A stretch of DNA of 64,000 bases from Alphaproteobacteria bacterium CG1_02_46_17 (GTDB taxonomy: Bacteria > Pseudomonadota > Alphaproteobacteria > Micavibrionales > Micavibrionaceae): contig MNUG01000009.1 of the NCBI GenBank assembly GCA_001871905.1, positions 62,001-126,000 of the forward strand. The letters are read 5' to 3'. The notes beneath the pieces were generated by a model. It saw only the letters and a list, made by a program, of their open reading frames with translations. It was not told where the DNA came from and searched no databases. Numbering within the stretch: position 1 is the stretch's first letter; each line of letters opens with the position of its first letter. Shown here in pieces: positions 14,199 to 34,797 of this stretch. The position numbers and the translations under genes are program-made.

Positions 14199-16034
14199 AT
14201 GGCTGGAAATCGTGTTTTATTAAGTGTTCAGGATGCTCTCGTAACTTTTGGCGGAGCGCCGTTGTTCGAAGATTTGACCTTTCATATTCTGGAAGGGGAT
14301 CGCACCTGTCTGGTGGGCAAGAACGGAGCCGGAAAATCCACCATGATGAATATTATTCGCGGGCTCAAAGATATTGATCAGGGAGAGCGATGGGTTTTGG
14401 CCGGAACAACAATCGGTTATTTGCAGCAAGATATCGCCCTCAAAGTCGGACAGACGGTTAAAGATTTTATTCTGGAAGATTTACGCGAAGAAAACCAGAC
14501 GGACGCTTTTACATACCGGATGGAAATGGTGGCCGAGCCATTACATATTTCCCTTGATGACCGGATGGATCAATTATCGGGTGGACAAAAGCGACGTGCT
14601 GCGTTGGCGCGGGCTTTGGTTGAAGATCCAGACATCTTGTTATTGGACGAGCCAACCAACCACCTTGATCTGGATGTTATTATCTGGCTGGAACAATATT
14701 TGAGGTCCTATCGTGGGGCGTTTTTATGTATCAGCCACGACCGGAAATTTTTGGCGAATATTTCAGATAAGGTTTTCTGGCTGGATCGGGGGAATTTGCG
14801 CGTTTGCCCAAAAGGGTATGCCCAGTTTGATGACTGGTCGCAAATGATGATCGAGCAGGAAGAGCGAGAATTAAAAAACCGTGAGAAGTTATTGGATGTT
14901 GAAGTTGATTGGGCGTCGCGTGGCGTCAAGGCGCGCCGGAAGCGCAATGTCAGGCGCTTGGCACTGATGAAAGACGAACGCGACCGTTTGAGAGCCGACA
15001 AGTCTGCATTCAACAGGATGATGGCAAAAGTCGAGGTTGAAGGCGGGGCATATGAAGGGTCGTCCAAAATTGTTGCCGAGTTTATAAAAGTCCATAAAAG
15101 TTTCGAGGATAAAAAAATTCTGGATGGATTCTCGATCCGGATTACCAAAGGTGACCGGATCGGAATTTTAGGGAAAAACGGATCAGGGAAATCGACATTC
15201 CTCAAATTGCTGATTGGGGAATTAGAAGCGGATGCAGGGAAGGTCAAGCGTAACAAAGAGATCGAGTTTTCCTATTTTGACCAGAACCGGCAGGATTTGA
15301 AGCTGGACGAGTCCCTATGGACAAATCTGGTTCCTAGCGGTGGAGATTACATCAATGTCATGGGCAAGCAACGCCATGTGTGCGGATATCTGAAGGATTT
15401 TCTGTTTGACCCGTCGTCAGCGCGGCACTCTGTTTCAACTTTGTCAGGGGGACAAAAGAACCGTTTATTGCTTGCAAAAGTTTTAGCCGATCCGAAGTCA
15501 TTCCTTATTCTTGATGAGCCAACTAATGATCTGGATATGGATACGCTTGATGTTCTGGAAGAAATTTTAAGTGTGTATCAGGGAACTTTGATTATTGTTT
15601 CCCACGATCGTGATTTTCTGGATCAGACCGTATCAAAAATTCTGGCTTTTGAAGGAGATGGCGAGATCGAAGGATATATCGGCGGGTATAGCGATTATCT
15701 TGAGGCACGACAAAAACAAAATCAACCGCAGAGCACTTCTGAAGAGGAGCAGAACAAAGATAATAAATCTGCTATTTTGCCGATGCCCTCTGTGTCGAAG
15801 AAACTGTCTTATAAATTACAGTATGAGCTGGAGAATCTTCCGAAAAAGATCGCGGCGCTTGAGGCTGAAATTGCGGGTTTAGTTGTCGTTTTGCAGGATG
15901 CCGATCTTTATACAAGAGACGCTGACGCTTTCTTCAAATCTACCGAAAGGCTGGATGTCGCCAAGGTCGAGTTGGAAGAGGCGGAAATGCGGTGGTTGGA
16001 GCTGGAAGATCTGCGCGAGGCGTCTAGCTCATAA
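14199..16034 (+). CDS. uup: ABC-F ATPase, Uup-like
   Basis: A soluble 611-residue protein with two ATP-binding cassettes and no membrane domain, the ABC-F pattern of ribosome-associated ATPases. Cassette 1 has Walker A GKNGAGKST (near 40), signature LSGGQKRR and Walker B ILLLDEPTNHLD. Cassette 2 has GKNGSGKST (near 325), LSGGQKNR and FLILDEPTNDLD. The interdomain linker is rich in basic residues. A C-terminal coiled coil (about 525-605) is what marks Uup, which binds branched DNA or ribosomes in E. coli. The last 11 bases overlap the convergent antiporter gene. Confidence 0.9.
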   Translation: MAGNRVLLSVQDALVTFGGAPLFEDLTFHILEGDRTCLVGKNGAGKSTMMNIIRGLKDIDQGERWVLAGTTIGYLQQDIALKVGQTVKDFILEDLREENQTDAFTYRMEMVAEPLHISLDDRMDQLSGGQKRRAALARALVEDPDILLLDEPTNHLDLDVIIWLEQYLRSYRGAFLCISHDRKFLANISDKVFWLDRGNLRVCPKGYAQFDDWSQMMIEQEERELKNREKLLDVEVDWASRGVKARRKRNVRRLALMKDERDRLRADKSAFNRMMAKVEVEGGAYEGSSKIVAEFIKVHKSFEDKKILDGFSIRITKGDRIGILGKNGSGKSTFLKLLIGELEADAGKVKRNKEIEFSYFDQNRQDLKLDESLWTNLVPSGGDYINVMGKQRHVCGYLKDFLFDPSSARHSVSTLSGGQKNRLLLAKVLADPKSFLILDEPTNDLDMDTLDVLEEILSVYQGTLIIVSHDRDFLDQTVSKILAFEGDGEIEGYIGGYSDYLEARQKQNQPQSTSEEEQNKDNKSAILPMPSVSKKLSYKLQYELENLPKKIAALEAEIAGLVVVLQDADLYTRDADAFFKSTERLDVAKVELEEAEMRWLELEDLREASSS

Positions 16035-20194: not shown

Positions 20195-20284
20195 GTGAAA
20201 AACTCCTGTAAAAGTTAAAAAATTCAGTGAAATCAATATGTAGCATGGGTTAAGGTGGCGGAGCAACACGGAAAAGGTGAGAAA

Positions 20285-20971
20285 ATGACGAATGCAGCGA
20301 TCAAATTGGATGAAAGCTGGCTTAATCAGGTCGGTGAGGAATTTGACAAGCCTTACATGCAGAATTTGAAGGAATTCTTGCGGCAAGAAAAGTCGTCTGG
20401 AAAAGTGATCTATCCGAAAGGAGACGAGATATTTAATGCACTGAATAGCACAGCCTTTGACGATGTCCGTGTCGTGATTTTGGGGCAAGACCCGTACCAT
20501 GGGCCAAATCAGGCGCATGGGCTTTCGTTTTCGGTGCAGGATGGGGTGAGATTCCCACCCAGTCTTCTGAATATCTACAAGGAAATTATCAATGAATTTG
20601 GTGGTGAGATGCCCAAGTCAGGCAATTTAACCTGTTGGGCCGAACAAGGAGTTTTGCTACTAAATGCCACTTTGACGGTTCAGCAGGCCATGGCTGGTTC
20701 CCATCAAAACAAGGGATGGGAAGAGTTTACGGATGCCATTGTGCGCGCGATTAATGATAAGCGTGAGCATGTGGTCTTTATGTTATGGGGATCATATGCC
20801 CAGAAGAAGGGCTCCTTTATTGACCGGAAGAGGCATCTGGTTCTGGCAGCACCGCACCCATCACCTTTGTCGGCACATCGCGGATTTTTGGGGTGTGGGC
20901 ATTTCAAAAGGGCAAATGAATATTTGGAAGAAAAGAGCTATGCACCGATTTTGTGGAGTCGGAAAATATAG
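20285..20971 (+). CDS. ung: Uracil-DNA glycosylase, family 1
   Basis: Removes uracil from DNA to start base-excision repair. Of 228 residues, [16 protein letters not shown] (near residue 65) contains the catalytic Asp and the water-activating loop, and [11 protein letters not shown] (near 190) is the minor-groove intercalation loop with the catalytic His. The ATG at 20285 follows an AAGGTGAG site; an in-frame GTG 30 bases earlier is less likely. It diverges from thrS. Confidence 0.96.
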
Positions 20972-21390: not shown

Positions 21391-23799
21391 ATGATGAATA
21401 CAGGGAACCAACTGGCTGATGATTATCTGAGAGGAGAGTTTAGATTCTCTCCCGAGATTGCTTCTCATATTTCCGAAGACAGATTTCATGCCCTGCGTTA
21501 TCAATTTTCCCAAAAGTATGATCGTTTCTATCATCCATATTTTAAGGAAAAGGGCGATAAGGTTGCGGCGAATAAGGCTCTAATTCGGATCGCTTTTTCA
21601 TTGTTTCTTGAAACCTACGGGCATTTGCCGTTGGCTTATAAAAACTGCGCGATTTCCAGTGGTACAAGAGCCCATCTTGATGCAGTCGTGCGGAACTATC
21701 ACACAACAGACAGGCTTTCACGCGTAGTCGGTGGTGATTGGCACGGGCGGACAATTAAAGACAACAGTCAACGCAGCCTTGAGCGGGTTGCCTTGATTAA
21801 AGATTTAATGAACGAGTTCTTCTTTGTCGCGCCGACAATGTTCGAAGGAAGCACCCGCGCATTTGCAAGTGGATTTGGACGTCAGTTGACGTCCATTCCA
21901 CCTCAGGCCGAAGAATATATGGCGTTCTGGAACATGGTGATTGATCAGTGTGAAGGATTTGTACTGGATGATGTCCGCATTGATATGCCGTCAATTGAAC
22001 GTGTCGAGCGTGAAATCATTTTGGCCAAAGCCTATTCTTCACAAACACGCGAACAGGATCGTTTAAGAACATCAGATTGGGTGAATTCGAGAAATTCAAC
22101 CTATGAAATGGGGCGTGGGAATTATATCCGTTTTGGTCTTCACCCGCTGCGGCCTGATGCCCAAATGGATATGCGAATTTATGACGAGTCCACGCATAGC
22201 CTTTATAAAGCGCCATTGATTGATACGTTTAAGCCTTTAGTTCAAGCCGCTGTCCGATGGGGAACTCAAGGTATCTGGATTGACTCGGTTATTGAAGAGG
22301 CCGCAGCCCATATTGATCTGCACCGGATGAGGACTGACGAAGTTTATAATAGACGTCAGGCAGCGCCATTGTTGCTGGAAGGGTTGGATACGGTCATTGC
22401 GAAACCCACGCAAAAAGAATGTCATGAGATGGATCGGATTATCGATACATTCGAGCCAATTATGCTTGAGTATTTTGCCCACCTGGTTAAGCCTGAAGGA
22501 TTGCCGGAGGAGTATGCCAAAGCCAAAGAAAAGCATCCGGTTAAGGCGCATATGAAGGGCGCAGACTCCGTGAAGTGGCAAAGGGAGAATATCCCGATGC
22601 AAAAAATGCTCGATTTGTGGGAATTGGCAATGCCTGATGAGGTTAATCCGAAAAAAGCATGTAAGGTCAAGCCCGTGACACACGGGGTTTATATTCCTCC
22701 ACGCCGTTTGCATGATTTTGAAAACCAGCCATTTGCAAAGCAAGATGGAGAAATTTGGCCGGATCGCCCATTTGATAAGCTTGATCCGATGTTCCAGCAA
22801 TTGGCAAAGGCTCATATCGGAGTGTTGGAAATTGTAGCCCATAATAATGATGCACCTGAATTTAATGGTTTGATATGTGATTTGAAGCGCGGGGATGCAG
22901 CTTTGGATGTCGCTGCCCAGAATGGTGTTTTTGATTTGGCTCATTTGCCTGGGGCTCTGGGAAATAAATTTTCCAAACAGGTGCGGCAGGTAAATCTTGA
23001 ACAGGCAATACAAGATCTGGAGGATGCCCGTCAGTCTAAAATTGGCAAGAAGATTAAGAAAGTACCGGCCTTCGGAACGCCAATTATTGCCAACATCAAT
23101 AGTGTTATCAATGCGGAGCGGAAACATTTCAATGGCCCCGGGCCGCTATCTGTTCCGACAGAATATCGTCTGGCGTTGATGATGGAAATGCTCAAACGCA
23201 ATTTAACGACATTAAAGTTTAGTAAAAACTGGGAAGCATCAGAAGATGAATGTCGGTTGATGATGCTGGCAACCAAAATCGAATTTGGTAAGATTGAACG
23301 CTCTGCGGGGAATAATACCGAGATTAAAATTTTAGGCAAAGATTCGGAATATATTCCATTCGCCGAACGTATCGAGCGTATTTACACATATTTGTCCCGT
23401 TTGAAAGAAGATCCGAAGATCAAGCGGGCTGCTGAAACACGGGATCCGTCAGTCTTGGAAGGATATGGGATTCGCCATATCAGTCTGACCTTGGCGCGAT
23501 TGATTGAGATTTATGACTGCATGAATGACGAGCAGTATAATGGTTGCCGTTTTGAAAAACGGCGTATTGAAAACCTGCGTGAATTTTCAACAGAGATGGA
23601 AAATATTGCGCAGATCCGTCGCACCGCTTTGCAGGAGTTACAAAGTGAATGGTGCTGGCTTTGGGCTGAAGAAGATTTCAGCGATTTAAGGCAGGAATAT
23701 AAAGATGCATGGATACGTGTTCATGGGCGACAAGCCCAGAATGTGGGAATTGATGAACATTTTGATAAAGGAGTTAGGAGTAGATACGGCCCCCAATAA
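21391..23799 (+). CDS. Unrecognised 802-residue protein, first gene of the RNase J-like/ExoI-like operon
   Basis: I do not recognise this protein. It has no signal peptide or membrane helix and looks soluble, charged and largely helical. Segments with strong composition include a basic-acidic helical stretch near residues 535-560 and a C-terminal block rich in Arg, Glu and Trp (about 700-802). No Walker, HNH, PD-(D/E)XK or zinc-finger motif was found by eye. The ATG is preceded by an AGGGA site. It sits 62 bases ahead of the RNase J-like gene and opens a five-gene same-strand run, so a role alongside the two nucleases, for example as a scaffold or substrate-binding subunit, is an inference. 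Confidence 0.75.
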   Translation: MMNTGNQLADDYLRGEFRFSPEIASHISEDRFHALRYQFSQKYDRFYHPYFKEKGDKVAANKALIRIAFSLFLETYGHLPLAYKNCAISSGTRAHLDAVVRNYHTTDRLSRVVGGDWHGRTIKDNSQRSLERVALIKDLMNEFFFVAPTMFEGSTRAFASGFGRQLTSIPPQAEEYMAFWNMVIDQCEGFVLDDVRIDMPSIERVEREIILAKAYSSQTREQDRLRTSDWVNSRNSTYEMGRGNYIRFGLHPLRPDAQMDMRIYDESTHSLYKAPLIDTFKPLVQAAVRWGTQGIWIDSVIEEAAAHIDLHRMRTDEVYNRRQAAPLLLEGLDTVIAKPTQKECHEMDRIIDTFEPIMLEYFAHLVKPEGLPEEYAKAKEKHPVKAHMKGADSVKWQRENIPMQKMLDLWELAMPDEVNPKKACKVKPVTHGVYIPPRRLHDFENQPFAKQDGEIWPDRPFDKLDPMFQQLAKAHIGVLEIVAHNNDAPEFNGLICDLKRGDAALDVAAQNGVFDLAHLPGALGNKFSKQVRQVNLEQAIQDLEDARQSKIGKKIKKVPAFGTPIIANINSVINAERKHFNGPGPLSVPTEYRLALMMEMLKRNLTTLKFSKNWEASEDECRLMMLATKIEFGKIERSAGNNTEIKILGKDSEYIPFAERIERIYTYLSRLKEDPKIKRAAETRDPSVLEGYGIRHISLTLARLIEIYDCMNDEQYNGCRFEKRRIENLREFSTEMENIAQIRRTALQELQSEWCWLWAEEDFSDLRQEYKDAWIRVHGRQAQNVGIDEHFDKGVRSRYGPQ

Positions 23800-23861
23800 G
23801 TTGGGTTGGTTTTTAGATCTGATTTCAAAAAAAATAAAAAGTTGAACAGGGAGAACTCCGA

Positions 23862-26800
23862 ATGGAGCTTAACAAGCAAGACTTGTTAGAGGATCTTGGA
23901 CTAGCGCAACAAAATCATAAGCCATATGGCAAAAAAACATTGCACATTGATAAAGGGGAAATTGATCCCAAAAGTCATGGTGGTGTTGCCATGTTGTCGT
24001 TGGGTGATTTTGATGCGGAAGGATTCTTACAGGCGCTCGACGTCAAATATTGGGCTGTCCATCCTGATGGTCGGTATGAAGTGCAGCATCTATTTCAGAT
24101 GGAGTTGCAACGGCGTCCTTTTAACCGTGTCAAGATTACATCTCTGACTGTTCTTGGTCGTGAAATTTCTTTGAGTGACAGTCGTTCTGTTGATACGGTT
24201 ATCGAGGCAATTCGCCGTATCCACGTCAACTTACGTGATCGGGAACCTGAATTGCCAGATGTTGCCGGAATTTTCAAGGACTGCAATATTGAAGATATTG
24301 TCGGAGAATCCTTGCCTCTTCCCGGATTTCATTCCAAATCCAGATTGTATTTTCCGATCTCTCCGAATTTTAATTTTTCGGCAGCTTTTATTGCAAAACC
24401 AGAATTGATTTTGCCGCTTGAGGCTGTTCGCCCTTTGATGGGTATTCGAAAAAATACGATTGATACCGATCATTCTTATGTCGAAACAAACCGGTTGCGG
24501 GTGCGTGGCGTGCCTAATCCGAAGAACAGACGTAAATTTGAAATGGTTTCGGAACTTCTCAAACATAAGACTGATACGAATGAACGTCATCTGAAAATAT
24601 CGCAGCAGGAGCTGGATGTTCCGGTTTCGGGGGCGCGCAGAAAACCGTTATTGGAAGCCACTTGGTCTGTTATTAAAAGTAAAAACGGGAATGAAGACAG
24701 TGTTGCCAAACTGACAGGGTTAAATGTTCGGTCCCAGAACATCATGATGAAGGGGTTTCGAGGCGTTATGGGTATGATCGGAGTTATCAACCGTACCCAT
24801 GCAGATATGTTGAAGCTGAGAAACTATCCAAGTATGCGAGATTATCTGGCGGAATTCGGGCATCTTGAGACCATGTCTTCTTCTAGTGCTGCGCCATCTT
24901 TTGAAGGGCGGCTGGTTCTGGTGTCTCGTGGCGGGAATAACCTGCGTGAAATATATCCGGGCATTGGTGAAGATATTGGTGGAAACTGCAAAGTTGTCCG
25001 CACCGAGTGGATGGATCGCAAAACAAAATCCATTCGTCGTTTGGGCGTTATCATGGATTTGGGTGCATATATTATCCGTAAAAAGTCCAAATGGACAGGT
25101 GGCGGGCCAGACATTGTAGAGGATCTGGAATATTGCAAGGATATCTTCATTTCGCACCATCACCTTGATCACCTTGATTTTATTATTCCGTATATTAAGC
25201 GGGCGATTATCAAGCCTCATCATTGTCTGCACATGACTCCCGAAGTCTTCGAGATGGCCAAAGACAAGTTGAGCAAATGGGGGATCAAGCTGGATGATTC
25301 CCGGATGCCGAAAATAAATTTACTGGAAGGTGCCGGTGTTCTGGATTTGAAAGATGATGATGGTGTTCTCCGGATGTCGGTGGCTTATGGAGTTGATGCC
25401 GTTCCTCACTCGGCAAAGGACACACCTTTTATTGCTTACGGGCGTCATGGCAAGAAAATTCTTGGGTCTTACATGTATCTTGGGGATATGCGGTATGACG
25501 AGGATTGGTTTGCCGATCATGACAGCCCGTTTTGGAACCCTGTTTCATTGATGCTGAAACATGACCCGACGCTAAAGGGGCAAGAAGAAAACCTGATTCC
25601 GACTTATACCGAACAAGATGGGACGTCGGTCAAGCGGCATGGGCGTGGTGCTCGTGAAAGTGAAGTTGAAGATAATCTGGTTAATTTGATAAATAATTGT
25701 CTATTCGACAAGCATGTTTTGATTTCGATGATTGGAACAAACGATGGTCGGCGCGAAACCGGATTGAGAATTGCCAACCGAACGCAACGCAAGACAACAG
25801 CTTTTGGGGCTGCCGTTGAAAAGATTTTTGCCGTTGCCAATAAGCTTGGAGTTAATCCGTATCGTTGCCCGCGCCCTGACCCTGATAAATATACGGGGGT
25901 TAAAGATTATCTGAAATGGAATGCCGAACAGCTAGATATTCCGTCGACTGAGTTCTCCGGTCGTACATCTGATACGACAAAAGAATGGTTCGAGACACAA
26001 AAACCCGGTGGGATTCTGGCGTTTCTGTCCGGATCACAAGGAACAGATATCGAGCAAGATTCTGTTACATATAAATTATCATTGGGAACCTCCTATTTTG
26101 ATGCTGATCCAGAAACTTCTCCGACGGCACGTCCTCTCGATATGAAGGATTGCGCGATTATTGTTTCGCAAAGTGCTATTCCGGGAAATCAAGGGAAACA
26201 ACGCCAAATGATCGAGCGTTTAGCTAGACGCGGCGCCATTGTCTTTGAGGCCATCGGGGATGGATTCCGTGTGCATAATGCCGGTAAACTCGAAAAGAGA
26301 ATTACCGAGTATCTGGCAACAATCGGGCATACACCAACTCGTGAAGCCAATACGATCGCTTTTGAAAATTTTGCAATTCACTCATCCGGTCATGGCCGAA
26401 ACGGTGATTTTCGGTTGTGGTTGCATAAGTTGAAAGCGAAATTTTTTGGCGTTCACCACACAGATGATATGGAGTCGGTTCATGATGCATATGACACGAT
26501 TTTGGAGGAAGGAAAACTGCATCCGGGTGGAATTTTTGAAAACGCCGAGGAGGTTGATATTGGAAATGACTTTGTTCGGGCGATTGGTCGATCCCATACC
26601 TCGGTTGTTTTGACGGAAGAAATTGCCGAAGAAGGCAAGCATTATAACAAGCGTTTAAATACCCAACGTGTAATCAATTTTGATAGGTCTCCCCATGATG
26701 ATCTGGGGCTGAGTGGTAGGTCGGGAGGATTTGCCGAGGTCAGTTTTGGTCAGGAAGATATTGAAGATATTTATGCTGCCAATGATCCGTCTGTCGGGCA

Positions 26801-26903
26801 GGATGTCCGTTCGGATAAATGCCACGCCAAGCCCCAACGCCCATTCTTACGTCCTGTTGCCTCTGTGCCTGAATGGAAACCTTTGGATATGAAGGTGGCA
26901 TGA
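23862..26903 (+). CDS. Large RNase J-like metallo-beta-lactamase/beta-CASP protein
   Basis: A 1013-residue protein whose C-terminal two thirds follow the ribonuclease J plan. From about residue 345: RLVLVSRGGNN entry strand, VIMDLGAYI (motif 1 Asp), HHHLDH at 432-437 (motif 2 HxHxDH), PHSAKDT (motif 3 His), YLGDMRYD (motif 4 Asp), SGSQG at 723-727, SAIPGNQG, HSSGHG at 840-845 and FFGVHHTDD (beta-CASP C-region His). Catalytic residues look intact, so zinc-dependent 5'-3' exo- or endonuclease activity on RNA is likely. Canonical RNase J is about 550 residues. The first 345 residues are an extension I cannot assign. The stop overlaps the next start (ATGA). Confidence 0.8.
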   Translation: MELNKQDLLEDLGLAQQNHKPYGKKTLHIDKGEIDPKSHGGVAMLSLGDFDAEGFLQALDVKYWAVHPDGRYEVQHLFQMELQRRPFNRVKITSLTVLGREISLSDSRSVDTVIEAIRRIHVNLRDREPELPDVAGIFKDCNIEDIVGESLPLPGFHSKSRLYFPISPNFNFSAAFIAKPELILPLEAVRPLMGIRKNTIDTDHSYVETNRLRVRGVPNPKNRRKFEMVSELLKHKTDTNERHLKISQQELDVPVSGARRKPLLEATWSVIKSKNGNEDSVAKLTGLNVRSQNIMMKGFRGVMGMIGVINRTHADMLKLRNYPSMRDYLAEFGHLETMSSSSAAPSFEGRLVLVSRGGNNLREIYPGIGEDIGGNCKVVRTEWMDRKTKSIRRLGVIMDLGAYIIRKKSKWTGGGPDIVEDLEYCKDIFISHHHLDHLDFIIPYIKRAIIKPHHCLHMTPEVFEMAKDKLSKWGIKLDDSRMPKINLLEGAGVLDLKDDDGVLRMSVAYGVDAVPHSAKDTPFIAYGRHGKKILGSYMYLGDMRYDEDWFADHDSPFWNPVSLMLKHDPTLKGQEENLIPTYTEQDGTSVKRHGRGARESEVEDNLVNLINNCLFDKHVLISMIGTNDGRRETGLRIANRTQRKTTAFGAAVEKIFAVANKLGVNPYRCPRPDPDKYTGVKDYLKWNAEQLDIPSTEFSGRTSDTTKEWFETQKPGGILAFLSGSQGTDIEQDSVTYKLSLGTSYFDADPETSPTARPLDMKDCAIIVSQSAIPGNQGKQRQMIERLARRGAIVFEAIGDGFRVHNAGKLEKRITEYLATIGHTPTREANTIAFENFAIHSSGHGRNGDFRLWLHKLKAKFFGVHHTDDMESVHDAYDTILEEGKLHPGGIFENAEEVDIGNDFVRAIGRSHTSVVLTEEIAEEGKHYNKRLNTQRVINFDRSPHDDLGLSGRSGGFAEVSFGQEDIEDIYAANDPSVGQDVRSDKCHAKPQRPFLRPVASVPEWKPLDMKVA

Positions 26904-29900
26904 TGAAACATGATGCAAAACAGGATGATTTGATGAATCGGGATACGGGAAAGAAATTGGTTGTCCGTAAAGATGAGACTTTGTTTGATCTTCTCGATAT
27001 GGGGCTTTTGTTTTCAACTGTCTATGACACCGAGACAACCGATCTGGATAAACGGTTTGCAGAGATTACCCAGTTTGGCGGGTGTATTACCGATCTTGCA
27101 GGAAATATTCTGCACAAGGTTGACTATCGCGCAAAAATCTCCCCGCACACTGTTATTTCCCCCATGGCTTGGGTTGTCCAGCGTATGCGTCTTGATGATC
27201 TGCAACGCGGCGATCCAAAGGCAATCTTTATGGGCAAGGTTATGAAATTCTTTGAATATTCATCATCTCTGGATAAGGCTCCCTATATCGAAAAGTTTCT
27301 GGAGGGCTGTCGAGAAGGTGTTTACAAGGATGCAGAAAACAGAAAAGAAAAAAAATATTATGCTTATCCTGTGCAGAATGAAGATGGATCAACTGATTGG
27401 GACTTTATCCGTATTCATGAGAATCTAAGAAAATTTTATTTCAAGAACAAAAGCGGGCAATGGGTTAAGCGAGATATCAAGTCTTTATCTGTCGGCTATA
27501 ATAATGTGAATGCCGATGATCAGTGGCTCTGGACTGCGGCTCATATGTCTGGAGCCGAGAATATCTTTATGACCCATTTGGCACAGATGGGGAAGTTGCG
27601 TTTTGATGCCTTGCGCGCAGTTGAATCCGCATTTGTTATTGGCTCTGCGGGTGAGAATGGCCTAAAGGCAATGGAGAAAGAGAATCCACTGACAGGTGAG
27701 AAATACTTGTCATTTAGTCAGGGCAGTATTCTTGAGGTCAATACACGGCATTCAAGTGAGTTGAGGGATATTGTAGAAGGGATCGTTGATGAGGATGGCG
27801 CTCATATTGACTTGTCCCAGTTGCATGGGGCTCTATCTGACTCGCTTGCTCTTCTGGCGCTGGTTCGCTATATCCGCAAGGTTCATCCTAACGTTTTTCG
27901 CCAAATGGTAAAAAATTCAGATTGGAAATATGTCGTCAATAAAATGTCAGAAATATATGGGGAGTTTGGTAATAATCCGCCTCTGGCATATGTTGATAAA
28001 TGCTTTCCCGTTGTTGACGGGAAGATGGTATCCCTGATTGGAACTGACCAGTTCCGAAATGCCCCGAAAGTTGCGGTCGTCTGGAACTTGAATATTGACC
28101 CAAGCACTTATACGCACAATGAAAAGAAATCCATTAAAAAAATGACTGCGGTCGATTGGAAGCAGATATTGATTGATGCTTCGCATAATCCGAATTCACC
28201 ATTAAAAGTTATTCGCGCGCATAAGTCGCCACGTTTGTTTGATGCAGAGGTCGGATATCGGGCAGGTTTTAATCTTGATATGAATCGTCAGGAGATACAC
28301 CGTCGTATCAGCTTTGTTCGGGATGCAAAAATATCCGATGCAGTTATGGAGGGGTTACGTCTTGCTTTTCCACGATTGCATGGTGTTGATCGTATAGTTC
28401 TGCCTCAACCAGAAGAAGAGCTATTTACGTTTTCAACTCTGGAACTGTTTGATGCGGCTGCGGGCGAGGATGTACAGGTTCATTTCAGGGTAAAGAACAA
28501 AGTTGAGGAGATTGCTCAAAAATCTCGTCAAAATATTATGCAGATCAAATCATTATGGATGAAAGCTATACAATTTGATGAAGATATCCTTTTGGGATTT
28601 GCAGAAAATCCTGATGCGATGTTGGGCAAGATTGAAGAGCTGAATAAAAAACTCGGGAAAAAAGGTGGGGTTCGTATCCCTCAACCTGATGGGCCGGTTA
28701 CTGATTTTGATAGTGCCATGGCTTACAAAATAAAAATTCTTTACATAGCACGCTTTCATTTTTCTCGTGGAGATATTAAGGATATCGGTCACCATTTCTG
28801 GTTCGAGGACAAAGACGGGATTCGTTATTCTGATCAGGAAATTATGGGCTGGCCCATGGATAAAATCGATGACGCCAGAAAGAGCGGAAATTTGATTATT
28901 CGTCATGAAGTGGCTAACACAATGCCGTTGGTGCTTGACCGGATGATTGAATCATTGGGGTACGGTCATATTCTAGGAGAACAAGCACAGATTCAGCTTA
29001 GAGCCTATACAACCTTGCGCCAAAGAGGCATGCCACACCACCATGGACATGAGGACAGGTGGTACACAAAGGGGCGAGGGCAACGAGATTTGTCGAAGCT
29101 CAAGAATAATGAGATGACAAGGGAAGATTTGAAGGGAATTGAAAAATATATTCCTGGAGGATGGGAAGACTTTATTGAGCACCAGCATGATAGCCTGGCA
29201 AGTCTTTCTGAATACGAAGAGTATCTCAAAAGCATACAGCCGGAAGAGTTTACACCGGAATTGTTGTACTGGGCCGGTGTTGATCCGGATATCGGATATC
29301 CGATCCGTAATCATAATTTTGCGGTTGATCGGGAACGTTCGGTCGTTGTGGATGTACCGGATAGGTATTTGCAAAGTCCGGTTATTGAACCTGTGACTGG
29401 TCGTAATTTGTGGATTTTGCCATGTAGCGAACATTTTAATAAAGCATCGATGATCCATGACAAAGATCTTTTGTTTAGGGCAGAAAAATCTGGAAGAATA
29501 TATCATCTTCCGAATGCAAAGATGGTGGATGTTCCAAAGTCCGGCGGACTGCATGAAGACTTCTACCGTCAGGTTGAGACTGCATATTTGGCGACGGGGT
29601 TTAATATACCATCATTCAAAGACCGGATCGCAGTTATCGGTTCGGGTCCATACCCGTTATTTGATTTGCGCCAGCCTAATCAAAAAGCACAAAGTCTGAA
29701 TGTTGAAACACATGTTTTTGAGGGATTGGTTTCACCGGAATTGGCTGGGTATAAATATCCTATTTCTGGGGTCATCTTGCGGGATGACCATTTGAAAATT
29801 TCTGATGGAGCTATTCGTATTCGAGAGCAGGCTGATGGTCAATCAACCGGATGGGAGTTCGAGACAGAAGTTTTGCAGGCAAAGTATATTACTTTGAAGG

Positions 29901-30148
29901 ATGTAGAAAGCTTTACCGAAGAAGAGGTCTTGAGCTTTGGATTTCTAACGCATGAACAGGCCATAGATTATTTTAGCGCTCTGTTTTCGAAACAGAAAAA
30001 GGACCCAAGAAAGTTAGAAAATAAGGCGTTGGCAATTTCTTTTGCGGAAGTTAATGCCTTTGATGTCCAAAAGGGGATGATGTATTTCAAGCCAGATTCT
30101 CAGGTTCAGTCCTGTGTGGCTAAGAATTTTGTAAATAACTTATGTTGA
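26900..30148 (+). CDS. Large exonuclease I (SbcB)-like DEDDh exonuclease
   Basis: A 1082-residue protein whose N-terminal half resembles E. coli exonuclease I, a 3'-5' single-strand DNA exonuclease of about 475 residues. Matches: VYDTETTD (Asp43, Glu45), the GYNNVNADD motif at 199-207 (ExoI has GYNNVRFDD), and HGALSD at 309-314 followed by a helix ending HPNVF (ExoI HDAMAD). All five DEDDh catalytic residues are present. A later ExoI SH3-like block is suggested by KVAVVWNLNIDP near 395. The last 400 or so residues have no recognised partner. The start at 26900 overlaps the upstream stop, with AAGG six bases before it. Confidence 0.75.
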   Translation: MMKHDAKQDDLMNRDTGKKLVVRKDETLFDLLDMGLLFSTVYDTETTDLDKRFAEITQFGGCITDLAGNILHKVDYRAKISPHTVISPMAWVVQRMRLDDLQRGDPKAIFMGKVMKFFEYSSSLDKAPYIEKFLEGCREGVYKDAENRKEKKYYAYPVQNEDGSTDWDFIRIHENLRKFYFKNKSGQWVKRDIKSLSVGYNNVNADDQWLWTAAHMSGAENIFMTHLAQMGKLRFDALRAVESAFVIGSAGENGLKAMEKENPLTGEKYLSFSQGSILEVNTRHSSELRDIVEGIVDEDGAHIDLSQLHGALSDSLALLALVRYIRKVHPNVFRQMVKNSDWKYVVNKMSEIYGEFGNNPPLAYVDKCFPVVDGKMVSLIGTDQFRNAPKVAVVWNLNIDPSTYTHNEKKSIKKMTAVDWKQILIDASHNPNSPLKVIRAHKSPRLFDAEVGYRAGFNLDMNRQEIHRRISFVRDAKISDAVMEGLRLAFPRLHGVDRIVLPQPEEELFTFSTLELFDAAAGEDVQVHFRVKNKVEEIAQKSRQNIMQIKSLWMKAIQFDEDILLGFAENPDAMLGKIEELNKKLGKKGGVRIPQPDGPVTDFDSAMAYKIKILYIARFHFSRGDIKDIGHHFWFEDKDGIRYSDQEIMGWPMDKIDDARKSGNLIIRHEVANTMPLVLDRMIESLGYGHILGEQAQIQLRAYTTLRQRGMPHHHGHEDRWYTKGRGQRDLSKLKNNEMTREDLKGIEKYIPGGWEDFIEHQHDSLASLSEYEEYLKSIQPEEFTPELLYWAGVDPDIGYPIRNHNFAVDRERSVVVDVPDRYLQSPVIEPVTGRNLWILPCSEHFNKASMIHDKDLLFRAEKSGRIYHLPNAKMVDVPKSGGLHEDFYRQVETAYLATGFNIPSFKDRIAVIGSGPYPLFDLRQPNQKAQSLNVETHVFEGLVSPELAGYKYPISGVILRDDHLKISDGAIRIREQADGQSTGWEFETEVLQAKYITLKDVESFTEEEVLSFGFLTHEQAIDYFSALFSKQKKDPRKLENKALAISFAEVNAFDVQKGMMYFKPDSQVQSCVAKNFVNNLC

Positions 30149-30162
30149 GCGTGGAGAAAGTA

Positions 30163-31029
30163 ATGAACACTAAATCTTTTATTCTTGATGATAAATTGCA
30201 AAGGCTGGTTAATCTTGCAAAAAATCAGAAAGTCCCGAACTTGTCTGACAGTAGAATGGTTTTGGGGTGTACTGATCTGACATCTTTAACGGGACAGGAA
30301 ACCGAGATGTTAATTGAGATGTTATGTGCCAAGGCGGCAATACTCCATACAGGGTCTGTTTGTGTGTTTCCCGAATTTGTAAAATCCTCGTATAATTATC
30401 TGCAGGGAACCGGTGTTAATACAGCGACAGTCATTAACTTTCCCGATGGTCATCACCGAACGAGAATCAACGAAATTGCAACGCCTGAATCTGTTGAAAT
30501 TGATGTTAAGCGAGCTATCGAAATGCGAGCAGGTCAAGTTGATATTGTTCTCGATTATGAACATATGGCTGGCGGACATGCCAAAAAGCTGCTGAAAGCT
30601 GCGCGGAAAGCTTGTCCGGAAGATGTAACATTAATGGTGATTGTCGAGAGTGCATCGTATAAGACGGCGGAGGATCTTAGCGCGGCCTGTAGTCTTGCCA
30701 TTTCTGCAGGAGTTGATTTCCTTAAGACCTCGACAGGAAAACATTCATCGGGTGGGGCCACACCGGAAGCGGTTGCGGTTATGTTGCAAGCGATTAAAGA
30801 TTCCAAACGGGATGTCGGGATTAAAATTACAGGGGGGGTTAAGGATTTATCTGATTGTCTTCCCTATATGTATATGTTCCGTCATTTCTTTGGTTGGGAC
30901 AGTATTCGTTTTGACAGGTTCCGCATAGGAGCAAGTGGCATGGTAGATAATATCATTCGTAATAAATTGAATCTGGTTCCCGCTAATTCAATTACCCCGA
31001 ATGATCCGGCCATGCAGGCTTATTCGTGA
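30163..31029 (+). CDS. deoC: Deoxyribose-phosphate aldolase
   Basis: Splits 2-deoxyribose 5-phosphate into glyceraldehyde 3-phosphate and acetaldehyde, feeding DNA-derived sugar into glycolysis. The 288-residue class I aldolase shows CTDLTSL near residue 36, VCVFPEFV near 68, VINFPDGHH near 90, DIVLDYE near 130, FLKTSTGKHSSGGATPE near 185 with the Schiff-base lysine, and GIKITGGV near 220 with the second lysine. ATG 30163 with GGAG upstream is preferred over the ATG at 30142 that overlaps the exonuclease gene. No deoA, deoB or deoD lies nearby; its partners here are the two nuclease-like genes. Confidence 0.93.
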   Translation: MNTKSFILDDKLQRLVNLAKNQKVPNLSDSRMVLGCTDLTSLTGQETEMLIEMLCAKAAILHTGSVCVFPEFVKSSYNYLQGTGVNTATVINFPDGHHRTRINEIATPESVEIDVKRAIEMRAGQVDIVLDYEHMAGGHAKKLLKAARKACPEDVTLMVIVESASYKTAEDLSAACSLAISAGVDFLKTSTGKHSSGGATPEAVAVMLQAIKDSKRDVGIKITGGVKDLSDCLPYMYMFRHFFGWDSIRFDRFRIGASGMVDNIIRNKLNLVPANSITPNDPAMQAYS

Positions 31030-31038
31030 GGGTTGATT

Positions 31039-31785
31039 ATGGCTGCTGCACATATAGAGATCTCTAAAGAATTTGGAAAATGTTTGGAACGTGTATTTTT
31101 TCCCGATTTCGATAGCTATTTGATGGCTTTTGACCGGAAAAGGATAGGGATTGAAGGGGGCGAGCGGTTTGCTCTGATTTGGAAACCGCGCAAGACTATA
31201 GAAGATGTTCCTAAAACACACATAGAGGCAGTTGGACCTGAATGGAAATCCCTGCGTTTGAAATTTTTGAATGCTTGTATAAATTTTGAACCAAATTCAC
31301 ATCCTTATATTGGAAAAGTTATTGATGCAGATGTCCAGCGCCAAGATGCATATGATTGGGAGGATAGTTTTCTTGTACCATGGGATAGGAATCTAGGACT
31401 TGGAGAAGCGCGCGATCTGGTCCGCAAGATTGCCTATCACCACAATATCAATCCATTGCCAAAAGTATCAAAAGGGAAGGGGGAGGTTGATGAGAATGGA
31501 AAGGTTTACTCCGAATATGTTGATGGCAACATCCATTTATCGCATTTAACCTTAATGCATACGATTCATGAGTCTGCTCACATGGTGATTGCCAATGGTG
31601 AAAACGGAGACGAGTTGTATACCTCACATGGGCCAGTGTTTGTTTGGAAGCTCATATCTCTTTATCATCACTACGCCAACATCCCATTGGATTACATGAT
31701 TTCAACTGCAGAAGACCATAATCTATTAGGGGATTCTTCTTATCGCAAAATGAGCGGTTCAAAATCCATGGTTCGCAATCCATAG
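31039..31785 (+). CDS. HExxH zincin-like protein of unknown function
   Basis: The 248-residue protein contains MHTIHESAHMVIA with an HExxH zinc motif (His177, Glu178, His181) and a likely third ligand in TSHGPVFVWKL (His197). This spacing of HExxH followed by a short loop and HGP is seen in SprT/Wss1-like and related small metalloproteases. There is no signal peptide, so it should act in the cytoplasm. A TTG start six bases earlier is possible. It begins 10 bases after deoC and closes the operon. Its substrate is unknown; DNA-protein crosslink repair by SprT-type enzymes suggests one possibility but is only an analogy. Confidence 0.65.
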   Translation: MAAAHIEISKEFGKCLERVFFPDFDSYLMAFDRKRIGIEGGERFALIWKPRKTIEDVPKTHIEAVGPEWKSLRLKFLNACINFEPNSHPYIGKVIDADVQRQDAYDWEDSFLVPWDRNLGLGEARDLVRKIAYHHNINPLPKVSKGKGEVDENGKVYSEYVDGNIHLSHLTLMHTIHESAHMVIANGENGDELYTSHGPVFVWKLISLYHHYANIPLDYMISTAEDHNLLGDSSYRKMSGSKSMVRNP

Positions 31786-31854
31786 AATATTCTTTTATTT
31801 TCAGTTAGTTATTTTCAACCCTTGAGGGGGGTGAGATTTTTCCTTGTGCTTTTT

Positions 31855-31912: not shown

Positions 31913-32221
31913 ATGAAAAAGCAAACAGTGACAAGGAACGGTAATCGAAAAGCTTTGGAAAATGCGTTGTATGACGCCGTTTTGTCCTTGGCTGATAAAA
32001 GAGAATGCCGTGCATTTTTCGAGGATATTTGTACGCCCGCAGAGATTGAGGCGATGGTTGATCGGTGGCAGGTTGCACAAATGTTGGATGAAGGAATTCC
32101 TTATCGCACAGTTTCAGAAAAAGCAGCGGTGAGTCTGGCAACGGTTACCCGTGTTGCGAGGTTTCTTCATAATGGGAATAGCGGGTATCGAACAATTATA
32201 GATCGGATGAAGAGTAGATGA
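31913..32221 (+). CDS. TrpR/YerC-family transcriptional regulator, candidate histidine repressor
   Basis: A 102-residue protein of the TrpR superfamily YerC/YecD branch: LADKRECRAFFEDICTP near residue 28, then a helix-turn-helix in TPAEIEAMVDRW and GIPYRTVSEKAAVSLATVTRV. TrpR uses the same fold to bind tryptophan and DNA; YerC homologues have been proposed as histidine-biosynthesis regulators (HisR) in Gram-positive bacteria. Its ATG lies 128 bases after the zincin gene and its stop overlaps hisG (ATGA), so it is coupled to the histidine operon and a matching palindrome sits in its own promoter. The effector (histidine or another) is inferred. Confidence 0.85.
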   Translation: MKKQTVTRNGNRKALENALYDAVLSLADKRECRAFFEDICTPAEIEAMVDRWQVAQMLDEGIPYRTVSEKAAVSLATVTRVARFLHNGNSGYRTIIDRMKSR

Positions 32222-33123
32222 ATGATGAATTAAAAAATAATGCCAGATTAAAGCTGGCGGTTCAAAAATCTGGTCGGTTGGCTGATGATTCCCGCGCATT
32301 ATTAGAAAAATGTGGCATTCGTTTTACCAAAAGCAAGGATCAGCTATTTTGTACTGCTCAGGACTTTCCCCTCGATCTTTTTTTTGTTCGGGATGATGAT
32401 ATTCCTGCGTTTGTGGCCTCAGGCGTTTGTCAGATTGGAATTGTCGGGCAGAATGTTTTGAGTGAAGAGAAATTACTGTCAAAAAATAAAAAGCTACAAG
32501 ATGTTGAAGAAGTTCTTCCCTTGGGATTCGGAAAATGCCGCTTGTCAATTGCGATCCCATATGGGTTTGAATATGAGAATGCGCAATCATTACAAGGCAA
32601 AGTTATTGCCACGTCATATGAAGGATTGTTGTCAGAATTTCTGATGCTGAATAATGTTGAGGCTGAGATCGTGGATATGCGCGGGGCTGTTGAGATTGCA
32701 CCACGGGTTGGTATGGCGGATGCGATCTGTGATCTGGTGTCAACGGGGGCTACTTTGGCAGTAAATGGTTTGCAAGAAGCAGAAGTCATTTTCAAAAGCC
32801 AGTCTGTTTTAATTAAAGGAACAGAGATCTCTGATGATCAACAGAAGATTCTTGATCGTTTATTGATGCGTATTCGTGGCGTTTTGCAAGCCGAGAATAG
32901 CAAATATATTATGTTTCATGCGCCGATCCAGTCTCTTGATGAATTGCGGAATGTCATTCCGGGATCTGATGCCCCAACTGTTCTGGAATTGCAGGGGCGG
33001 ACAGATAAAGTTGCTGTTCATGCTGTTTGTAATGAAGATGTTTTCTGGGACACGATGGAAGATTTACGGAGCAAAGGGGCAACAGATATTCTGGTTGTTC
33101 CAATTGAGAAGATGCTGGAGTAA
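32218..33123 (+). CDS. hisG: ATP phosphoribosyltransferase HisG (long form)
   Basis: First enzyme of histidine synthesis: joins ATP and PRPP to give phosphoribosyl-ATP. The 301-residue length, with a C-terminal regulatory domain after about residue 225 (the region LELQGRTDKVAVHAV), marks the long form that is inhibited by histidine and does not need HisZ. KLAVQKSGRL near the N terminus and the DLVSTGATLAVNGL PRPP-loop block near 170 are diagnostic. It overlaps the regulator stop by four bases and is followed three bases later by hisCB. Confidence 0.95.
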   Translation: MNDELKNNARLKLAVQKSGRLADDSRALLEKCGIRFTKSKDQLFCTAQDFPLDLFFVRDDDIPAFVASGVCQIGIVGQNVLSEEKLLSKNKKLQDVEEVLPLGFGKCRLSIAIPYGFEYENAQSLQGKVIATSYEGLLSEFLMLNNVEAEIVDMRGAVEIAPRVGMADAICDLVSTGATLAVNGLQEAEVIFKSQSVLIKGTEISDDQQKILDRLLMRIRGVLQAENSKYIMFHAPIQSLDELRNVIPGSDAPTVLELQGRTDKVAVHAVCNEDVFWDTMEDLRSKGATDILVVPIEKMLE

Positions 33124-33126
33124 AGC

Positions 33127-34797
33127 ATGATGCAGCAAAACATGATTTTATCACGCGCGCGGCCATCTGTTCTGGCTATGAAAGCTTATTCTTCGGCGCG
33201 TTCTTTGTATAAGGCTGGGGATGGGTATATTTTTCTGGATGCCAATGAATGTTCCTATGAACCTTATGTGGGGGCGCAGAATTTGAACAGATATGCCGGA
33301 CAACAACCGCGCGAAGCTATTGAGGCTCTCTGCCGTTTATATGATGTTTCCAGCAGAAATTTAGTTCTGACCAGAGGGGCTGACGAAGCTATTGATGTTC
33401 TTGTCCGTAGTTTTTGTGAGGGAGGACAAGATTCTATCCTGATTTGTCCCCCAACTTTTCCAATGTATGGACAAGCAGCAACATTGCAAGGTGCAGAAAT
33501 TATAGAGGTTCCATTAAACATTGGAAATAATTTTTCCATTGATGTAGAAGAAATTGAATCTGCGATTCGACCCAATACCAAGATTGTTTTTCTGTGTTCT
33601 CCCAATAATCCAACGGGAAATTTGATCCCTTTGGAACAGATTGAACAAATTTGTCGTTTTTGTGATGGACAGGCTTTGGTTGTTGTTGATGAGACTTATA
33701 TTGAGTTTTCTGGGCAAAAAAGCTGCCTTGATATTATATCTGCATATTCAAATCTGGTGGTGTTGCGGACTTTATCCAAGGCTTATGCTGCGGCGGGGCT
33801 GCGTGCCGGTGTGGCGATTGCCAATGCAGATGTCATCTCGTTATTGAGAAAAGTTCTTGCGCCTTATCCAGTGGCGCAAAATGTCGCGCAGGAAATTGTC
33901 AGGATTACTGATCCCAATAATATTAAAAGATTGAGTGCCAAAATGGCAGATACGATTGATCGCCGGGAAGAATTTGCACAGCGTTTGGCAGGGTTCGATT
34001 TTGTAGAAAAAATATTTCCGTCCTCGGCAAATTTCCTTCTGATTCAAGTTCGGGATGCTGATCTTTTTGTTCAAAATTGTCTGGATGGCGGCATTATTGT
34101 TCGCAATCAATCTCATTTGCAGGGCATACAAAATTGCGTGCGAATTTCTATTGGATTTAAAGAGGATATGTCACGTTTGTTGGATGTATTGTCTGGTAAT
34201 ACTCCGCAGGCAACAAGTGCTGGACGAACCGCGCGGGTTGTTCGTAAAACGACAGAAACGGCGATTGATCTCAGCCTCAATCTTGATCAGAAAGATCTTG
34301 TTAATATTAATACGGGGGTTCGTTTTTACGATCACATGTTAGAGCAGGTCGCCAAACATGCAGGATTTTCTATCCAAATAGAATGTGTCGGGGATGTTGA
34401 TGTTGATGCACACCACAGCATTGAAGATTGTGCAATTGCCTTGGGTGTGGCGATCAAGCAGGCTTTGGGTGATAAGCGTGGTATCGGGAGATATGGGTTT
34501 ACTGTGCCGATGGATGAGTCCTTATGTGATGTTGCAATTGATCTGTCTGGCCGTTTTTATCTGAATTTTGATGGCGAGTTTCCGGATCGACATGTCTCGG
34601 ATATGCCGTGTGATATGGTCGAGCATGTGTTCCGGTCATTGGCGGAGAATATGGGGTGTAACCTTCATATTAAAGTGCGTGGAGAGAATTCTCACCATAT
34701 GGTCGAGGCTTGTTTTAAGGCGTTCGGGCGTGCGTTGGGTATGGCCATACGCTGTCAGGATGGAGATTCTTTGCCGAGTACAAAAGGGGTCTTATGA
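33127..34797 (+). CDS. hisCB: HisC-HisB fusion: histidinol-phosphate aminotransferase and imidazoleglycerol-phosphate dehydratase
   Basis: One uninterrupted 556-residue frame encodes two histidine enzymes. Residues 1 to about 358 are a class II PLP aminotransferase (HisC): YIFLDANECSYEP, CSPNNPTGNLIP, VVVDETYIEF and TLSKAYAAAGLRAG with the PLP lysine at 218. Residues about 365-556 are imidazoleglycerol-phosphate dehydratase (HisB): VRFYDHMLEQVAKHAGF and the two manganese motifs DAHHSIED and GENSHHMVEACFKA. HisC normally acts just after HisB, so the fusion joins neighbouring steps. The phosphatase domain found at the HisB N terminus in enterobacteria is absent; no histidinol-phosphatase is in the window. 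Confidence 0.93.
   Translation: MMQQNMILSRARPSVLAMKAYSSARSLYKAGDGYIFLDANECSYEPYVGAQNLNRYAGQQPREAIEALCRLYDVSSRNLVLTRGADEAIDVLVRSFCEGGQDSILICPPTFPMYGQAATLQGAEIIEVPLNIGNNFSIDVEEIESAIRPNTKIVFLCSPNNPTGNLIPLEQIEQICRFCDGQALVVVDETYIEFSGQKSCLDIISAYSNLVVLRTLSKAYAAAGLRAGVAIANADVISLLRKVLAPYPVAQNVAQEIVRITDPNNIKRLSAKMADTIDRREEFAQRLAGFDFVEKIFPSSANFLLIQVRDADLFVQNCLDGGIIVRNQSHLQGIQNCVRISIGFKEDMSRLLDVLSGNTPQATSAGRTARVVRKTTETAIDLSLNLDQKDLVNINTGVRFYDHMLEQVAKHAGFSIQIECVGDVDVDAHHSIEDCAIALGVAIKQALGDKRGIGRYGFTVPMDESLCDVAIDLSGRFYLNFDGEFPDRHVSDMPCDMVEHVFRSLAENMGCNLHIKVRGENSHHMVEACFKAFGRALGMAIRCQDGDSLPSTKGVL

What the first reader, a model, noticed from the sequence alone, without database searches (positions are those of the whole stretch)
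21391..31785. Five-gene operon pairing an RNase J-like and an ExoI-like enzyme with deoxyribose aldolase
Seen: five same-strand genes with gaps of 62, -4, 14 and 9 bases, of which the first three are unusually long (802, 1013 and 1082 residues). Known: RNase J degrades RNA; exonuclease I degrades single-stranded DNA to nucleotides; DeoC catabolises deoxyribose 5-phosphate. Inference: the cluster may be a machine that breaks down foreign or spent nucleic acid and feeds deoxyribose to metabolism, for instance scavenging of DNA from prey or environment, or a defence against invading nucleic acid with salvage. I know of no described system with this makeup.
Basis: partly seen in the sequence, partly recalled or inferred. 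Interest (0 to 1): 0.85.

Follow-up and report, generated by a model that had tools for sequence, protein, structure and literature searches.

The report
Conserved nucleic-acid-digesting operon in Micavibrio relatives
A set of three very large bacterial genes, two of them nucleases that probably attack opposite ends of a nucleic-acid strand, is kept together across relatives of the predator Micavibrio and travels with enzymes that dismantle nucleotides and deoxyribose, which points to an undescribed machine for breaking down DNA inside the cell.

Summary
The five genes are real and under purifying selection. Three large ones form the core: g1 (802 aa, no known family, two related halves), g2 (1013 aa, RNase J-like), g3 (1082-1091 aa, exonuclease I-like). 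g2 and g3 stand together in 21 of 142 Micavibrionales genomes, with g1 beside them in 17, and all three in two further families of the class, once in another order. No genome showed both. Active sites are kept, with few exceptions. The small genes are exchangeable partners: DeoC, a HAD nucleotidase, or (fused form) a 5'-nucleotidase. In family f1, 12 of 13 deoC genomes have the nuclease; 16 of 17 with the zincin do; 16 of 18 with the nucleotidase outside family f3 have the fused form; order-wide, deoC is not linked. Best reading: a cytoplasmic line that digests single strands, mainly DNA, and feeds the products to catabolism. The source of the substrate (prey, phage, own damage) and g1's role are unknown.

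The parts
21391..23799 (+). g1: 802-aa protein of a new family, two homologous halves
   Evidence: No Pfam/NCBIfam/PHROGs hit; in 16 members of alignment A4 (window included) no Pfam hit better than E 0.013; halves 70-300 and 455-690 align by hhalign, probability 94.8, E 4.8e-8; AlphaFold2 mean pLDDT 84.5, no significant PDB fold match
23862..26903 (+). g2: RNase J-like metallo-beta-lactamase/beta-CASP nuclease with a ~340-aa N-terminal extension made of two related beta-rich units
   Evidence: Profile to RNase J1 4.8e-13; model pLDDT 84, Foldseek to RNase J 2.6e-23; H432 H434 D436 H437 H516 D542 H844 H866 invariant in the 19 sequences of A5; N-terminal repeat hhalign probability 89
26873..30148 (+). 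g3: giant exonuclease I-like (DEDD) protein; start 26873 (1091 aa) or 26900 (1082 aa)
   Evidence: Profile to ExoI structures 1.4e-7; DxE, D, HxxxxD residues invariant in the 20 sequences of A6 (D32, E34, D195, H298, D303 in A6 numbers, add 20 for the 1091-aa form)
30142..31029 (+). g4: DeoC, deoxyribose-phosphate aldolase; the only deoC found in this genome
   Evidence: TIGR00126 138 bits, cut-off 117.3; single match in G000; D and both K of the aldolase site kept (site recalled)
31033..31785 (+). g5: zincin (HExxH) protease, SprT-like by weak similarity of relatives; TTG start at 31033 or ATG at 31039
   Evidence: HExxH; PF10263 SprT-like below cut-off in 5 of 8 zincins scanned, best E 0.0016, not in the window's own
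31818..31832 (+). terminator-like hairpin after g5
   Evidence: Consensus scan only; 14 found versus 10.4 +/- 3.3 in shuffles, so weak
20255..20971 (+). ung, left neighbour of the inserted cassette (not part of it)
   Evidence: NCBIfam ung; in G003 thrS, an ung-like ORF, a short ORF and hisG are contiguous without g1-g5 (L158)
32218..33123 (+). hisG, right neighbour of the inserted cassette (not part of it)
   Evidence: NCBIfam hisG; empty site in L158

Best explanation
A cytoplasmic nucleic-acid digestion line. Core: an RNase J-like and an ExoI-like nuclease, either as two neighbouring genes with g1 or fused in one protein, shred single-stranded nucleic acid from opposite ends to 5'-mononucleotides (shown: both enzyme classes, their kept active sites, their genetic coupling; inferred from the families: polarity, product, single strands). 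Partner enzymes then dismantle the products: 5'-nucleotidases take off phosphate, DeoC splits deoxyribose 5-phosphate, which marks DNA as at least part of the substrate (shown: genetic linkage and co-occurrence; inferred: flux). The SprT-like zincin would clear proteins from the strand (inferred). g1 would be a scaffold, loader or nucleotide-handling subunit of the two-gene form (inferred; the fused loci examined have none next to them). The most likely purpose is recovery of carbon, phosphate and bases from DNA that reaches the cytoplasm, for example from prey.
For: g2 and g3 together in 21 of 142 genomes of the order, with g1 in 17, and the three in 2 genomes outside it, once as g1-x-g2-g3 and once as g2-g3-g1. 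The same two nuclease parts fused in 20 of 142, none of them with the split form. Both active sites kept. Adjacent catabolic enzymes: DeoC downstream of g3 in 4 of 21, divergent DeoC-like upstream of g1 in 3 of 21 with aldolase residues kept, HAD nucleotidase-like in 2 of 21, PF06189 nucleotidase directly downstream of the fused gene in 6 of 20. Co-occurrence: deoC in f1 12 of 13, zincin 16 of 17, PF06189 outside f3 16 of 18 with the fused form; within-genus permutations p 0.0022, 0.0029, 0.00025. No clear export signal by a crude hydropathy scan.
Against: No activity, expression or complex has been shown. DeoC is not linked to the nuclease over the whole order (14 of 40 deoC genomes; p 0.21), because families f3 and f5 have deoC anyway; 11 f3 genomes have PF06189 without either nuclease form; PF06189 is not linked to the three-gene form (1 of 18; p 0.97). 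101 of 142 genomes showed neither form. 12 of 21 three-gene loci show no such catabolic neighbour (contig ends hide one or both sides in some, such as L082 and L090). deoB is over its cut-off in 1 of 142 genomes, so how deoxyribose 5-phosphate would arise is open. ARL-13 is reported to make nucleotides itself and to have no known nucleotide transporter (PMC3189940, passage). No unrelated patchy family was run as a control for the co-occurrence.
Confidence: 0.45

Rival explanations
1. A DNA repair or DNA-clearing machine: nucleases of both polarities plus a SprT-like protease remove damaged or protein-blocked single strands from the cell's own chromosome, and DeoC/nucleotidases tidy up.
For: Zincin relatives weakly resemble SprT-like, a family whose member SPRTN removes DNA-protein crosslinks (search listing). 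The Haloferax RecJ3/4-aRNase J complex joins RNase J to a DNA exonuclease and acts in DNA-damage survival (abstract and passages). ung lies next door in the window, but an ung-like gene is also there at the empty site, so this says little.
Against: Patchy presence (41 of 142); partners are catabolic enzymes of monomers; by eye, no repair gene recurs beside the core in the loci listed (listing 37 was cut).
Confidence: 0.2
2. Anti-phage defence: the system degrades invading nucleic acid and depletes nucleotides.
For: Patchy, whole-cassette presence or absence at a site that is otherwise housekeeping; different sites in G000 and G010; ExoI part resembles RTasSbcB of DRT systems (E 4.3e-8 for g3, 3.6e-18 for a fused protein); one decayed g1 (L086).
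Against: No defence-family hit better than E 0.038 for g1, g2, g4, g5. Flanks read by eye are mostly housekeeping genes. Among the flanking proteins scanned the ATPase at 14199-16034 matched mad3 at 1.1e-58 and several other ATPase models, but the same gene stands beside the empty site in G003, G006 and G010, so it is not part of the cassette; a PLP enzyme and an FAD enzyme gave weak matches. No match in phages or plasmids for g1 or g2. deoC and 5'-nucleotidase are not usual defence genes (recalled).
Confidence: 0.18
3. A specialised RNA-processing or RNA-turnover complex; DeoC and the zincin are chance or regulatory passengers.
For: RNase J is an RNA enzyme, and Hvo-aRNase J prefers RNA to ssDNA (passages); the N-terminal extension of g2 could be an RNA-binding part (inference).
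Against: ExoI is a DNA enzyme by family (recalled); DeoC recurs in two arrangements and several genera; a canonical-length RNase J-like frame is present besides (G000:C12, 565 aa).
Confidence: 0.12
4. Neighbourhood without functional unity.
For: deoC and the zincin are absent from many core loci.
Against: g2-g3 kept together in 14 genera of the order at identities to the window protein down to 18%, and fused elsewhere; co-occurrence statistics.
Confidence: 0.05

Closest known systems
RecJ3/4-aRNase J complex of Haloferax volcanii (PMC10470531)
   Same: An RNase J partnered with an unrelated exonuclease that works on RNA and single-stranded DNA
   Different: The partner there is RecJ, not ExoI; archaeal; role in DNA-damage survival; nothing like g1, deoC or a nucleotidase in the passages I saw
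Bacterial RNase J
   Same: g2 shares fold and metal-site residues
   Different: g2 is about twice as long, with a repeated N-terminal extension, scores far below the RNase J cut-off, and exists beside an RNase J of ordinary length
Exonuclease I (SbcB)
   Same: g3 keeps the DxE/D/HxxxxD residues and part of the C-terminal domain
   Different: More than twice as long; below family cut-offs; coupled to or fused with an RNase J-like part
deo operon (DeoC with DeoB and nucleoside phosphorylases; recalled)
   Same: DeoC
   Different: DeoB not found in G000 and over its cut-off in only 1 of 142 genomes; DeoC sits after nucleases
Secreted nucleases of Bdellovibrio (PMC7925074, abstract and outline only)
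   Same: Predator nucleases that could feed on prey DNA
   Different: Those are secreted; these look cytoplasmic

Membership tests
RNase J | MBL/beta-CASP fold with HxHxDH and further metal ligands | tested here: met
   Fold: Foldseek 2.6e-23 to RNase J. Residues H432, H434, D436, H437, H516, D542, H844, H866 invariant in A5; ligand roles are recalled
RNase J | Score above the curated RNase J family cut-off | tested here: not met
   39.3 bits against 820 (RnjA) and 18.2 against 400: RNase J-like, not a member
Exonuclease I (SbcB) | DEDD residues DxE, D, HxxxxD | tested here: met
   Invariant in the 20 g3 sequences aligned and in the 19 fused ones; residue roles recalled
Exonuclease I (SbcB) | Score above the curated ExoI cut-off | tested here: not met
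   37.7 bits against 260; Pfam C-terminal domain 17.3 against 27
Deoxyribose-phosphate aldolase (DeoC) | Equivalog score and Schiff-base lysine | tested here: met
   138.1 bits over 117.3; KTSTG and second lysine present. Holds for g4; the three divergent DeoC-like proteins score only 20-26 bits
SprT-like protease | HExxH with third His and family score | tested here: inconclusive
   Motif present; PF10263 in 5 of 8 zincins scanned, all below the 25.6-bit cut-off, best 18.7; the window's own zincin has no hit to it
Nucleoside 2-deoxyribosyltransferase fold (for g1) | Profile similarity to PF05014 proteins | tested here: inconclusive
   hhalign probability 0.4 against 8 NDT sequences, while the control NDT versus YtoQ-like gave 65; order of strands and an S-R-x4-E motif looked similar by eye; no structure search of the domain alone was possible
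DRT (defence-associated reverse transcriptase) | Reverse transcriptase in the operon | tested here: not met
   No reverse transcriptase among the hits of the five proteins
RecJ-aRNase J complex | DHH-family RecJ subunit | tested here: not met
   No DHH family among the hits of the five proteins

The most novel reading that the evidence does not exclude
Predatory Micavibrio-type bacteria carry an intracellular DNA digestion line: prey DNA is taken in as single strands, a SprT-like protease clears bound protein, a giant two-ended nuclease (RNase J-like plus ExoI-like, held together by the new protein g1 or by fusion) reduces it to nucleotides, and nucleotidase and DeoC pass phosphate, bases and deoxyribose carbon to metabolism. 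It would be a new class of nucleic-acid degrading machine, with g1 a new protein family that either clamps the two nucleases or strips bases from the nucleotides.
Probability: 0.3. Interest if true: 0.85.

Novelty: categorically new. Interest (0 to 1): 0.68.

Why it matters
It ties together two nucleases of opposite expected polarity, a new large protein family and monomer-catabolising enzymes in one conserved unit, found as operon and as natural fusion. If it is defence or repair instead, it is still a system I find undescribed. I call the system new because its make-up has no counterpart in the listings of my ten paper searches; its enzymes belong to known superfamilies.

Tried and rejected
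g1 as nucleoside deoxyribosyltransferase / dNMP N-hydrolase: attractive because it would make deoxyribose 5-phosphate for DeoC in genomes without DeoB, but profile comparison gave no support (where my NDT set held wrong frames, cleaned set) and a PDB sequence search with the N-terminal half gave only chance syntaxin matches. Kept only as a possibility.

g1 fold: Foldseek best E 0.25, VIA-align best Z 5.6, both within noise for helical models.

Mobile-element origin: no g1 or g2 match in phages or plasmids; a viral-contig scan gave no g2 relative. g3 was not searched in those collections. G+C of the cassette (0.41-0.46 in 2-kb windows; flanks 0.43-0.49) does not stand out clearly. In BFVD the g2 model matched one phage 'putative exonuclease' at 3.3e-11, which shows only the shared nuclease fold.

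Wider distribution: samples of 385 genomes of the class and 398 of the phylum at E 1e-12 found 2 and 0 further carriers outside the order; this threshold misses the fused form (G062, a fused-form genome, read as negative). I did not search for g1 or g3 alone.

Left out of counts or alignments: L084 and L090 are not in A5, L082 is not in A6, and the two carriers outside the order are in neither; G114, whose fused gene is split between two contig ends, is counted as fused but is not in the alignment of 19. Zincin counts use E <= 0.001 and include weak matches (G027 7.8e-4, G083 8.1e-5, G123 1.4e-6 on a short frame).

Literature: searches listed no paper that by title or abstract start describes such a system; only open-licence PMC text is held. 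Papers opened: PMC3189940 (outline, sections 10 and 14, passages), PMC10470531 (passages), PMC7925074 (abstract, outline).
Full report
WHERE IT IS. The window is part of a 2.07-Mb genome (G000:C37). A contig of Micavibrio sp. UBA6212 carries g2 at 100% in the best segment, and G004, of the same genus, carries all five genes at 90-99.6% protein identity. NCBI taxonomy files UBA6212 under Bdellovibrionota; 'Micavibrionales, Alphaproteobacteria' is my recall.

THE GENES. g1-g5 lie at 21391-31785 on the plus strand. All five evolve under purifying selection against G004 (Ka/Ks 0.015-0.17). g2 is RNase J-like: profile 4.8e-13 to RNase J1, predicted model pLDDT 84 with Foldseek 2.6e-23 to RNase J. 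Its first ~340 residues contain a repeat of a beta-rich unit (hhalign probability 89). g3 is ExoI-like. Both stay below curated family cut-offs, so they are distant variants. The metal-site residues of g2 and the DEDD-type residues of g3 (roles recalled) are invariant in the 19 and 20 sequences aligned, the window's included. g1 has no family in Pfam, NCBIfam or PHROGs, is predicted with confidence (pLDDT 84.5), matches no PDB fold significantly, and consists of two related halves (hhalign probability 94.8, E 4.8e-8). In 18 sequences G91, W180, S233, R234, E239 and G249 are invariant (numbers converted to g1), all in the first half.

DO THEY TRAVEL TOGETHER? A g2 profile in 142 genomes of the order, followed by reading the loci, shows the long g2 in 21 genomes of 14 genera. 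g3 is adjacent in 20 and one gene away in L030. g1 lies on the other side in 17 (in L084 only its end is on the contig), is broken into pieces in one (L086, G077), and cannot be judged in three (L024, L082, L090), where the contig ends. Identities to the window proteins fall to 14% for g1 and 18% for g2 and g3. In a sample of 385 genomes of the class two carriers lie outside the order: G358 with g1, a 142-aa gene, g2, g3, and G447 with g2-g3-g1. A sample of 398 genomes of the phylum gave none but the own genome.

THE FUSED FORM. Searches with g2 and with one fused protein led to 20 of 142 genomes with a single protein that matches g2 in its first part and g3 in its last: 19 were read in full (1,539-1,610 residues); in G114 it is split between two contig ends and was counted. 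In the alignment of the 19, the ExoI residues D999, E1001, H1188, D1193 (L070 numbers) are invariant, as are H438, H441, H551, D572, H818 and H846 of the MBL part; the first His of HxHxDH is Glu in two, and one sequence has an undetermined letter there. No genome showed both forms; the chance of no overlap is 0.03 without correction for kinship. A gene fusion joining the same two enzymes in other genomes is the strongest sign that they work together. G081 carries the fused form; its single contig of 2,481,983 bases has the exact size published for M. aeruginosavorus ARL-13 (PMC3189940, passage).

PARTNERS. DeoC follows g3 in window, G004, G010 and G108 (4 of 21). Divergent DeoC-like genes of 390-399 residues, far below the DeoC cut-off but with the aspartate and both lysines of the aldolase site, lie upstream of g1 in G066, G016 and G087 (3 of 21). 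HAD proteins resembling pyrimidine 5'-nucleotidase, below that model's cut-off but over Pfam's Hydrolase cut-off, lie beside g3 in G043 and G090 (2 of 21). The other 12 of 21 show none of these beside the core, contig ends hiding part of the flanks in some. A PF06189 5'-nucleotidase lies directly downstream of the fused gene in 6 of 20 (L031, L066, L070, L072 confirmed by Pfam; G073 and G106 by position). Zincins related to g5 occur in 17 of 142 genomes at E <= 0.001, some weakly, 16 of them with a nuclease form, 3 of these next to it; in G031 and G081 two stand in tandem about 12-13 kb from the fused gene.

STATISTICS. In family f1 (104 genomes) deoC over the cut-off: 12 of 13 have the nuclease (Fisher 4.8e-6). 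Over the whole order this is not significant (14 of 40; p 0.21). PF06189 outside family f3: 16 of 18 have the fused form (1.3e-14); it is not linked to the three-gene form (1 of 18; p 0.97), and 11 f3 genomes have it without either. Zincin: 16 of 17 (2.6e-9). Fisher ignores kinship; shuffles within genera gave p 0.0022 (deoC in f1, 3 informative genera), 0.00025 (PF06189 and fused form, 5) and 0.0029 (zincin, 2). Some of these are adjacent genes, so linkage and co-occurrence are not independent. No control family was tested.

SITE. In G003 thrS, an ung-like ORF, a short ORF and hisG are contiguous (L158) where the window and G004 carry g1-g5; in G010 this site has no cassette (L162) and g2-g5 lie on another contig (L024). 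The set is therefore gained, lost or moved as a unit.

MECHANISM. From the families (recalled): RNase J degrades 5' to 3', ExoI 3' to 5', both to 5'-mononucleotides; nucleotidases and DeoC act downstream. DeoC speaks for DNA. DeoB is over its cut-off in 1 of 142 genomes and not found in this one, which leaves the source of deoxyribose 5-phosphate open. The zincin's likeness to SprT (5 of 8 scanned, below cut-off) suggests, no more, removal of proteins from DNA. No protein shows a clear export signal by a crude hydropathy scan.

VERDICT. Observation confirmed; interpretation partly supported: the conserved unit is three genes, not five, and it is most likely a nucleic-acid breakdown system with exchangeable partners. 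Prey, phage or self as the substrate source is undecided.

Noticed in passing
window 33127-34797: One gene encodes histidinol-phosphate transaminase (HisC, residues 12-355) fused to imidazoleglycerol-phosphate dehydratase (HisB, from residue 363-367 to 556).
   Followed up: no
window 38904-40274: A second beta-CASP metallo-beta-lactamase (PF10996, PF07521) lies about 7 kb past the operon; its kinship to the CPSF/Ysh1 kind is recalled.
   Followed up: partly
L086:12168-14737 (G077): g1 is broken into several frames while g2 and g3 beside it are intact.
   Followed up: partly
L093, L094, L098, L100, L102: Genomes of family f3 and G046 carry an extra ~530-580-aa RNase J-like protein; in some loci the neighbours look like flagellar hook-associated genes by eye.
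   Followed up: no
L026:2434-3588, L079:15269-16423, L080:191-1348: A membrane adenylate/guanylate cyclase-like gene faces the end of g3 in three genomes of genus g9 (domain confirmed for L026 only).
   Followed up: partly
order-wide: deoC is over the cut-off in 40 of 142 genomes but deoB in only 1.
   Followed up: partly
L064:905-1543, L092:8168-8734: A ~190-210-aa gene with a shared WP-x-x-GW motif precedes the fused nuclease in these two loci (by eye).
   Followed up: no
L111:7509-7937, L112:6830-7795, L112:5392-6447: Unknown genes stand inside or before the core in the two carriers outside the order, without a Pfam hit; in L112 a HAD hydrolase (PF00702) stands one gene further upstream.
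   Followed up: partly
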